Assembly: GCA_007135395.1 (NCBI GenBank)
Contig: SLIZ01000201.1
Span: forward strand, 1 to 53,101
DNA from: Wenzhouxiangellaceae bacterium
Lineage (GTDB): Bacteria; Pseudomonadota; Gammaproteobacteria; Xanthomonadales; Wenzhouxiangellaceae
Length of the DNA: 53,101 nucleotides
Reading direction: 5' to 3'
Part shown: positions 1 through 1,760 of the stretch, in pieces
Position numbering within the stretch: position 1 is the stretch's first letter
How the letters are laid out: each line of letters opens with the position of its first letter
Notes under the pieces: generated by a model
Seen by the model: only the letters and a program-made list of their open reading frames with translations
Databases searched by the model: none
Told to the model about the DNA's origin: nothing
Made by a program: the position numbers and the translations under genes

Positions 1-1200
1 GATGCCGGCATCATCCACATGAACGGCCGGATCTACGATGCCCAGCTCGGCCGCTTCCTGCAGGCCGACCCGTTCGTCGAGGACACCACCACGCTCAACC
101 GCTACACCTACGTGCACAATAACCCGTTGGCGTATACGGACCCGAGCGGTTATTTCTCTAGCTTCGCGCCCCACCGACTCCTCAATCGTGCCAGAAGGGG
201 CCTCATGCGGGCCATGGGACCGGAGGCAAGTGCGGTAGCCACCTCTGTGGGTTGTGCTGCCGTCGGTGTCGTAAGTGCCGGCGCAGGGGCTGCACCTTGT
301 GCTGCGTATACTAGTTATCAAATGACCCGTGCCTTTGGAGGCAGTCAAAGCGACGCATTCGGAAATGCGATGGTGGCCGGGGTCACGGCTGCCGCTTTCA
401 CTGCAGTGGCCAGCTCGGGCATCTCAAGTACAACCGGGCGAATGTTTGCCTATGGGGCTATTGGAGGTGCGAGTAGCAGAGTGCAGGGCGGAAGTTTCTC
501 ACAGGGGTTTATTTCGTCTGCATTTTCGAGCGTGACCTCGCCGTACATCAGTAGCGCCCCCGGAGGTGATGTGGGGCAGATCACAATAGCGGCCATTCTT
601 GGTGGCACGATCTCAAGTGTTTCCGGAGGTAAGTTCGCAAATGGGGCGGCTACTGCGGCGATGAGTTATGCGTTCGCCCAAACCGCAAACCGCAGTCAAG
701 GTGGCGGGCGTCGTTCCGGTACGGCTGGGTTATCAGGCTCACAAGAAGAAGCCTTTGGGTTATTGCAAGCTGAAGCTCAGACCGTTCTTTCTGATCTTGA
801 GGCGAGAATTGACGCTGCTTGGGCAGCAAATGATGTTGATTTGGCTGTTGAGTTACGTGACGCTTGGTTTGCGCTAATGAAAACAAGAGTAACGTTCTCT
901 CGGCATGGGGACTATGCAGAAACGACCACCGGCTATTTGTCAAACGGGAGAATTCTGGACGTTACTATGGACTTCGATGCTGGTAGTGTCCTGCATTTGT
1001 ATAGACATGGCGCGCCTGCTGTGACTTCGGAAGGGTACTTTGTTGATATGCAGTCTGGGCGACAGGGAGTTAGGGAGCTGTTGGTCCATGAGGCTCGACA
1101 TGGCACTATCCATAACATCTTTGGTCCTTCTGGAGCGCAGCTAACTCAAAGACAAATGGAGCGTGATGCAGATGCGTTTATAAGGAAGGTGTATCCATGA
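1..1200 (+). CDS. Rhs/YD-repeat protein, C-terminal end with putative zinc-metallopeptidase toxin domain (5' truncated)
   Basis: The reading frame is open from base 1, so the gene begins upstream of the window. The first ~50 visible residues are the Rhs-associated core: NGRIYDAQLGRFLQADP, then NRYTYVHNNPLAYTDPSGY, the usual boundary after which the polymorphic tip begins. Residues from about 60 to 240 are Gly/Ala/Ser-rich with hydrophobic stretches, typical of the pre-toxin segment that follows this boundary. The last ~150 residues differ in character and end with HEARHGTIH followed by ERDADAF. That is an HExxH zinc site plus a downstream E-x-x-A-D pattern of gluzincin type, so a peptidase (Tox-MPTase-like) tip is the best guess. 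The stop overlaps the start of the next gene (ATGA), as expected for a toxin/immunity pair. The tail is less G+C-rich than the rest of the window, consistent with exchange of tips. The Rhs identity is firm; the toxin activity is inference. Confidence 0.85.
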   Translation, partial: DAGIIHMNGRIYDAQLGRFLQADPFVEDTTTLNRYTYVHNNPLAYTDPSGYFSSFAPHRLLNRARRGLMRAMGPEASAVATSVGCAAVGVVSAGAGAAPCAAYTSYQMTRAFGGSQSDAFGNAMVAGVTAAAFTAVASSGISSTTGRMFAYGAIGGASSRVQGGSFSQGFISSAFSSVTSPYISSAPGGDVGQITIAAILGGTISSVSGGKFANGAATAAMSYAFAQTANRSQGGGRRSGTAGLSGSQEEAFGLLQAEAQTVLSDLEARIDAAWAANDVDLAVELRDAWFALMKTRVTFSRHGDYAETTTGYLSNGRILDVTMDFDAGSVLHLYRHGAPAVTSEGYFVDMQSGRQGVRELLVHEARHGTIHNIFGPSGAQLTQRQMERDADAFIRKVYP

Positions 1201-1760
1201 GGGCCGGATTTTTGAAACGATATGTTTTTGTTGCATTTGCTTTCAGTTTAGTAGGCTGTGTTTCGAGTCAGGGCGGTATGTCGATGCTGTTTAAAGCGCT
1301 TGTATTTGATGAGATTCCTGATGCAACTTTCACTGCAGGATATACTGATACCATTGAGATTGACGAAGCAGACGGGGTTGTAAGGTACAGTGGGGGCAGA
1401 CGATACACGCCTCTCCTGGATTGTGGGGATGATGCTTGGTTATGTATATCGGATGGCCACATCGAGTTTGCCGTTCGTAGAGACTGGCGAGGAGAGGAGG
1501 ACTCATGGGTATACCGCGACATGGCCTATTCTGTTTTGCGTAGCTCATCACGGCGTGAATATATTGTGGATGATACATCTTATTATATTCTTGCCAGTCC
1601 TCAGTCAGAGTTGGCTGAACGAACCTTGCCAAAAGTATTTCTGTACTCGACAGAGAAAGGCATTACCGCGATAACGATGTTTTTGCAGGGCTACAATGAA
1701 GTCCTAGTGCCAACGACATATGTTCGGGTCGATAGCGTCAAGAGTTTGGCTCCGGATTAG
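1197..1760 (+). CDS. Predicted lipoprotein, probable immunity protein of the Rhs toxin
   Basis: This 187-residue protein starts at an ATG that overlaps the stop of the Rhs gene by four bases, so translation is probably coupled. The N-terminus is a lipoprotein signal: MRAGFLKRY, a hydrophobic stretch, then the lipobox LVGC with Cys21. The residue after the cysteine is Val, not Asp, which in gammaproteobacteria favours the outer membrane. The rest is a soluble domain of no family I recognise. Base composition is clearly A+T-richer than the neighbouring housekeeping genes, which suggests horizontal transfer. Position directly behind an Rhs tip is the classic place for the cognate immunity gene. 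A periplasmic lipoprotein would make sense if the toxin acts in the cell envelope. The immunity role rests on position, not homology. Confidence 0.7.
   Translation: MRAGFLKRYVFVAFAFSLVGCVSSQGGMSMLFKALVFDEIPDATFTAGYTDTIEIDEADGVVRYSGGRRYTPLLDCGDDAWLCISDGHIEFAVRRDWRGEEDSWVYRDMAYSVLRSSSRREYIVDDTSYYILASPQSELAERTLPKVFLYSTEKGITAITMFLQGYNEVLVPTTYVRVDSVKSLAPD

What the first reader, a model, noticed from the sequence alone, without database searches (positions are those of the whole stretch)
1..1760. Rhs tip with HExxH zinc-protease signature and a lipoprotein immunity candidate
After the Rhs boundary the C-terminal domain ends in HEARHGTIH and ERDADAF, matching the HExxH plus E-x-x-A-D layout of gluzincin peptidases. 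The next gene overlaps by ATGA and encodes a lipoprotein of lower G+C with no known family. A periplasmic immunity protein implies that the toxin acts in the envelope, an unusual pairing for a peptidase tip.
Basis: partly seen in the sequence, partly recalled or inferred. Interest (0 to 1): 0.65.

Follow-up and report, generated by a model that had tools for sequence, protein, structure and literature searches.

The report
Rhs peptidase tip with secreted immunity
This is the tail end of a bacterial weapon gene: a probable zinc-protease toxin tip followed by a lipoprotein that should protect the producer; the same toxin-protector pair recurs in at least two other genera, and keeping the protector outside the cytoplasm turns out to be usual for such tips, not strange.

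Summary
The sequence description is correct. Window 1-1200 is the 3' end of an rhs gene cut by the contig edge: Rhs core, Gly/Ala-rich linker, then an orphan tip with HEARH (1087-1101) and ERDADAF (1159-1179). A 187-aa lipoprotein overlaps it by ATGA (1197-1760). Tip and lipoprotein form one low-G+C module (0.50/0.465 versus 0.611).

Relatives support a real toxin-immunity pair. L157, found through the tip, has the same linker, HEAxH...ExxAD (0/1000 shuffles), the same ATGA overlap, and a next gene with the same conserved pattern. L015 has a clearly homologous immunity protein (0/2000 shuffles) beside another HExxH tip. The immunity family (6-7 members, two conserved Cys) has a signal peptide or lipobox in every intact copy and is not in Pfam.

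"Unusual pairing" is not supported: nearly all HExxH-type Rhs tips sampled (10 of 11 by rule) sit beside genes with secretion signals, and Tpe-Tpi/VgrG2b is published precedent. Related linker-Rhs proteins are mostly Sec-exported, many SpvB-type, so periplasmic immunity is expected. The zincin fold could not be confirmed. The MAG's own rhs may be 5'-truncated. New member of a known kind, moderately interesting.

The parts
1..153 (+). 3' end of the Rhs repeat-associated core; gene cut at the contig edge
   Evidence: TIGR03696 residues 2-50, E 8e-15; window is G000:C180 from base 1; core 86% identical to L154, a SpvB-type Rhs
154..690 (+). Gly/Ala-rich linker ending SGGKFANGAATAAMSYAFAQ
   Evidence: shared at 31-60% identity with Rhs proteins of 25 other genomes of the order that carry different tips
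691..1200 (+). toxin tip, about 169 aa, predicted zinc metallopeptidase
   Evidence: no family match; homologous to L157 tip; G+C 0.50
1087..1101 (+). HEARH, putative zinc-binding and catalytic motif (H363, E364, H367)
   Evidence: sequence; aligned with HEAGH of L157 and HELGH of L015
1159..1179 (+). ERDADAF, putative third ligand E387 in ExxAD
   Evidence: aligned with EAKADDW of L157 and EIYANDF of L015
1197..1200 (+). ATGA overlap of tip stop and immunity start
   Evidence: sequence; same overlap in L157
1197..1760 (+). lipoprotein immunity gene, 187 aa, member of an undescribed secreted immunity family
   Evidence: 6-7 member alignment with conserved Cx(6-8)C, FAVP, SW, YSxExGL; no Pfam match
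1197..1259 (+). lipoprotein signal peptide, lipobox LVGC with Cys21 at 1257-1259
   Evidence: sequence; L042 member also has a lipobox, L015/L157/L044/L030 have ordinary signal peptides
1422..1445 (+). conserved Cys76 and Cys83 of the immunity family, possible disulfide
   Evidence: invariant columns of A7
2429..2683 (+). IS66 transposase C-terminal remnant downstream of the module
   Evidence: PF13817 E 5.5e-17 and PF03050 E 1.1e-6

Best explanation
A polymorphic-toxin cassette at the 3' end of an rhs gene. The last ~169 residues are a probable HExxH-E zinc peptidase (shown: motif conserved in relatives; inferred: fold and activity) that acts on an envelope target of rival bacteria (inferred). 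The overlapping gene encodes a lipoprotein of a new secreted immunity family that binds and blocks the tip outside the cytoplasm (location supported by lipobox; binding inferred). The parent protein belongs to the Rhs class with a Gly/Ala-rich linker whose full-length members are mostly Sec-exported, many of SpvB/TcdB type, so the producer's own periplasm meets the toxin and needs protection there (shown in relatives, inferred for this gene). In this MAG the gene may be a truncated remnant.
For: HEAxH...ExxAD shared with L157. Immunity proteins of the window and L015 homologous (E 3e-6, 0/2000 shuffles); more members by profile; the L157 next gene fits the same pattern (C-x-C, FAVP, SW) although L157 was found through the tip, not the immunity. 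All intact members carry a signal peptide or lipobox. Linker shared across different tips. Most full-length linker-Rhs proteins begin with a Sec signal peptide and 7 of 11 scanned carry SpvB over Pfam's cut-off. Window core is closest (86%) to one of these, L154. Linker-Rhs neighbours have secretion signals or TM segments in 21/26 against 20/42 for other Rhs, p 0.01. Low G+C module.
Against: Structure model of the tip is poor (pLDDT 48) and finds no zincin in PDB. L015 and window tips are not alignable by BLAST, so the link to L015 rests on the immunity side plus motif. Signal-peptide calls are a hydrophobicity rule, not a trained predictor. The N-terminus is missing, the MAG has no SpvB hit, and it does have T6SS TssC. 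The L157 immunity was aligned but not separately tested for significance.
Confidence: 0.7

Rival explanations
1. The tip is a toxin acting in the envelope, but not a peptidase: HEARH and ERDAD lie in helices of another fold or of a zinc hydrolase acting on peptidoglycan or lipid.
For: No peptidase family or zincin fold matched; HExxH occurs in non-peptidases (general knowledge).
Against: HEAxH and ExxAD kept in register in L157; five tips share the H, E, H columns.
Confidence: 0.15
2. The HExxH domain is a processing (releasing) peptidase, or an inactive remnant, and not itself the toxin.
For: HExxH domains act as releasing peptidases in PVC/eCIS toxins (PMC3482391); one of five related or similar tips gives a weak eCIS_core hit (E 0.012).
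Against: The domain is the extreme C-terminus, with nothing after it to release, and is directly followed by an immunity gene that co-occurs with it.
Confidence: 0.06
3. The parent Rhs is a T6SS effector (PAAR/VgrG-linked), and the tip is delivered into the periplasm like VgrG2b.
For: MAG encodes two TssC homologues; no SpvB hit; VgrG2b precedent.
Against: Core is 86% identical, and linker most similar, to L154/L008, a SpvB-type Rhs; another Rhs fragment in the MAG (C231) also matches L154 best.
Confidence: 0.15
4. In this MAG the locus is a decayed remnant: the rhs 5' part was lost to IS66, leaving a tip and a still useful immunity gene. (Compatible with the best explanation of what the pair is.)
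For: Only one Rhs core in the MAG, no SpvB, an Rhs fragment on C231 whose homology stops abruptly beside an IS66 remnant, another IS66 remnant after the immunity gene, orphan immunity in L044.
Against: The C231 and window pieces may be different genes or a binning artefact; tip and immunity frames are intact.
Confidence: 0.4

Closest known systems
TcdB/TcaC-export Rhs polymorphic toxins (signal peptide, SpvB, beta-propeller, RHS, variable tip; Zhang et al. 2012, PMC3482391)
   Same: Rhs core, variable tip with immunity gene downstream; close relatives carry signal peptide, SpvB, FG-GAP, TcdB_midN
   Different: the window's own N-terminus is missing, so export class is inferred
Tpe-Tpi effector-immunity family, VgrG2b C-ter / PA0261 (PMC6899460)
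   Same: HExxH tip with an immunity protein exported to the periplasm, some of them lipoproteins
   Different: no detectable sequence similarity to any solved chain; carrier is Rhs, not VgrG
Tox-MPTase1-5 metallopeptidase tips of Rhs toxins (PMC3482391)
   Same: HExxH tips at the end of Rhs proteins, some with TcdB/TcaC export
   Different: no Pfam match; that paper lists no immunity protein for any Tox-MPTase, whereas this pair has one
eCIS_core / DUF4157 (PF13699)
   Same: HExxH metallopeptidase-like
   Different: only one of five tips gives a weak hit (E 0.012), the window tip none

Membership tests
Rhs polymorphic toxin | Rhs repeat-associated core before the tip | tested here: met
   TIGR03696 E 8e-15
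Rhs polymorphic toxin | same upstream region joined to different tips in relatives | tested here: met
   about 28 linker-Rhs with different tips; all-against-all tip comparison gives one clear pair only
Rhs polymorphic toxin | immunity gene directly downstream, neutralising the tip | not testable with these tools
   gene position and co-occurrence shown; neutralisation needs experiment
TcdB/TcaC-export Rhs class | N-terminal signal peptide and SpvB domain | tested here: inconclusive
   N-terminus missing; no SpvB in MAG; present in nearest relative L154
T6SS Rhs effector | N-terminal PAAR or VgrG association | not testable with these tools
   N-terminus missing; TssC present in MAG
Gluzincin metallopeptidase | HExxH with downstream Glu ligand | tested here: met
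   HEARH + 19 residues + ERDAD, conserved in L157
Gluzincin metallopeptidase | zincin fold | tested here: inconclusive
   pLDDT 48; both motifs fall in helices but no PDB zincin match
Tpe-Tpi (VgrG2b) family | sequence homology to VgrG2b C-ter | tested here: not met
   no PDB chain at E up to 10 by sequence or profile
Tpe-Tpi (VgrG2b) family | immunity protein exported from the cytoplasm | tested here: met
   lipobox and signal peptides across the immunity family
Tox-MPTase / other Pfam metallopeptidase toxins | match to a curated Pfam model | tested here: not met
   none for the window tip at E up to 10

The most novel reading that the evidence does not exclude
The GGKFANGA Gly/Ala-rich linker marks a Sec-exported Rhs class whose tips, peptidases and others, act mainly in the envelope, so the linker predicts the compartment of toxicity and of immunity; the window pair is one member, with a first immunity family assigned to a Rhs metallopeptidase tip of this class.
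Probability: 0.3. Interest if true: 0.6.

Novelty: new member of a known kind. Interest (0 to 1): 0.42.

Why it matters
The 2012 catalogue of polymorphic toxins lists metallopeptidase tips of Rhs proteins (Tox-MPTase1-5) without immunity partners (PMC3482391). This gives one such tip a defined partner family with a testable signature (signal peptide or lipobox, two Cys, FAVP, SW, YSxExGL) and a simple, testable rule: Sec-exported Rhs toxins should be neutralised outside the cytoplasm. It would also help annotate orphan immunity genes such as the one in L044.

Tried and rejected
Single-protein scans of genome contigs and viral contigs with the tip or immunity gave no relatives; plasmid tblastn gave none. 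Five weak order-level tip hits were wrong-frame or unrelated genes and were rejected. Of the weak hits of the tip-pair profile only L157 held up. A linker HMM built from merged hits was contaminated by Rhs core and flagged every Rhs; it was discarded and replaced by the GG[KDNSE]FxxGA motif and known core coordinates. A first control count with a strict core pattern was underpowered, p 0.1-0.16. Pairwise tests do not support L030 as a family member on sequence alone; it is kept only as a possible member. The immunity model (pLDDT 56) resembles LolA/LolB-like half barrels only weakly, E about 0.01, TM 0.35: not used. A phylum-wide search with the immunity profile gave no convincing member outside the order. 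The idea of a cytosolic-immunity control among HExxH tips (L158) was dropped after its next gene proved to have a signal peptide.

Full report
What is there. The window is contig C180 of a 2.78-Mb metagenome-assembled genome in 271 contigs, starting at base 1. The first frame is open from the contig edge to a stop at 1198-1200. Residues 2-50 match the Rhs repeat-associated core (TIGR03696, E 8e-15). The next gene starts at 1197 inside an ATGA overlap and encodes a 187-aa protein with a clear lipobox, LVGC. Neither the tip nor the lipoprotein matches Pfam, NCBIfam, PHROGs, PADLOC or, beyond chance, any PDB sequence. G+C is 0.61 for the core stretch, 0.59 for the linker, 0.50 for the tip, 0.465 for the lipoprotein and 0.611 for the rest of the contig, so tip and lipoprotein look like one inserted module.

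Where the tip begins. Between core and tip lies a Gly/Ala-rich stretch of about 180 residues ending in GGKFANGA and a short tail. A search of 300 genomes of the same order found this stretch in 26 genomes, in open frames of up to about 4,450 aa. Translating past it shows different tips in nearly every case; among 30 tips only one pair is clearly alike. This is the mix-and-match layout of polymorphic toxins.

The pair has relatives. In L015 (genome G069) the linker is followed by a tip with HELGH and EIYANDF, and the next gene has a signal peptide and is homologous to the window lipoprotein: BLASTP E 3e-6, score reached by 0 of 2000 shuffles, and by far the best match among all neighbouring genes. 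A profile of the two found three more members in 399 genomes of the order: L042 (lipoprotein), L043 (cut at a contig end) and L044 (signal peptide, in an island without an Rhs gene). Separately, a profile of the two tips found L157 (genome G345): same linker, a tip reading LEGVLAHEAGHAVF...VLEAKADDWARMVWP against the window's VRELLVHEARHGTI...QMERDADAFIRKVYP, the same ATGA overlap, and a next gene with a signal peptide and the same C-x-C / FAVP / SW pattern. The tip score is reached by 0 of 1000 shuffles. Because L157 was found through the tip and not through the immunity profile, it is independent support for the pairing. L030 looks similar by eye but fails the pairwise shuffle test and is kept as possible only. 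The immunity members have no real Pfam match. A phylum-wide sample gave no convincing member outside the order.

How the parent proteins travel. The window's N-terminus is not in the assembly. In relatives with the linker, 15 longer stretches were read: nearly all that reach a true N-terminus start with a Sec signal peptide. Seven of the eleven scanned match SpvB above Pfam's cut-off, and several carry FG-GAP and TcdB_midN. This is the TcdB/TcaC export class of Zhang et al. (PMC3482391). The window's core is 86% identical to L154, one of these, and an Rhs fragment on contig C231 of the same MAG also matches L154 best. So the window gene most likely derives from a Sec-exported Rhs. A toxin that crosses the producer's periplasm needs an immunity protein there, which makes a lipoprotein partner expected.

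Is the pairing unusual? No. By a hydrophobicity rule, neighbours of linker-Rhs genes (window excluded) have a secretion signal or membrane segments in 21 of 26 cases against 20 of 42 for other Rhs genes from a partly overlapping set of genomes (p 0.01). HExxH-type tips are followed by such a gene in 10 of 11 cases by rule (the other, L019, is borderline; one further tip, L126, has no detectable neighbour) against 25 of 60 for other tips (p 0.003, or 0.011 when homologous pairs are counted once). The two effects overlap, some counts were compiled by hand from the tables, and related genomes are not independent, so these numbers are indications. Published precedent is direct: VgrG2b of P. aeruginosa carries an HExxH tip that kills only in the periplasm, needs the HExxH glutamate, and is neutralised by an exported immunity protein; relatives of that immunity protein include a lipoprotein (PMC6899460).

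What could not be shown. With three sequences the tip model has pLDDT 48; both motifs lie in helices that follow a strand pair, as in zincins, but no PDB zincin is matched. The immunity model is beta-rich, pLDDT 56, with only weak resemblance to LolA/LolB-type half barrels. Activity, target and neutralisation are inference.

State of the locus in this MAG. There is one Rhs core, no SpvB and two TssC homologues, so a T6SS is likely. The C231 fragment loses homology abruptly beside an IS66 remnant, and an IS66 remnant also follows the immunity gene. The simplest reading is a 5'-truncated rhs retaining tip and immunity, but the two pieces could be different genes; they were not joined.

Verdict. 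It is a new toxin-immunity family of a known kind.

Noticed in passing
window 2429-2683: IS66 transposase C-terminal remnant downstream of the immunity gene.
   Followed up: partly
L162 (G000 contig C231) 1-468, minus strand: Rhs fragment of the same MAG, best match L154, whose homology stops abruptly next to an IS66 transposase remnant; suggests the MAG's rhs is truncated.
   Followed up: partly
L044 (G148:C3:178000-197000): Cluster of small secreted or lipoprotein genes including an orphan member of the window's immunity family, with no Rhs gene seen in 19 kb; looks like an immunity island.
   Followed up: partly
L129, L130, L137: Second HExxH-type Rhs tip family (FHETFH) in genomes of the window's family, with lipoprotein or signal-peptide neighbours.
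   Followed up: no
L026 and L032: The only clearly homologous pair among 30 linker-Rhs tips (E 1e-8), both with secreted neighbours; conserved His motifs, enzyme type not determined.
   Followed up: no
L047 (G000:C106:8722-9630) and L048 (G000:C162:717-1541): Two TssC/VipB homologues: the host probably has one or two type VI secretion loci.
   Followed up: no
window 154-690 and the same stretch in L008-L036: The hydrophobic Gly/Ala-rich linker looks like a glycine-zipper membrane region; a role in crossing or inserting into membranes is untested.
   Followed up: no
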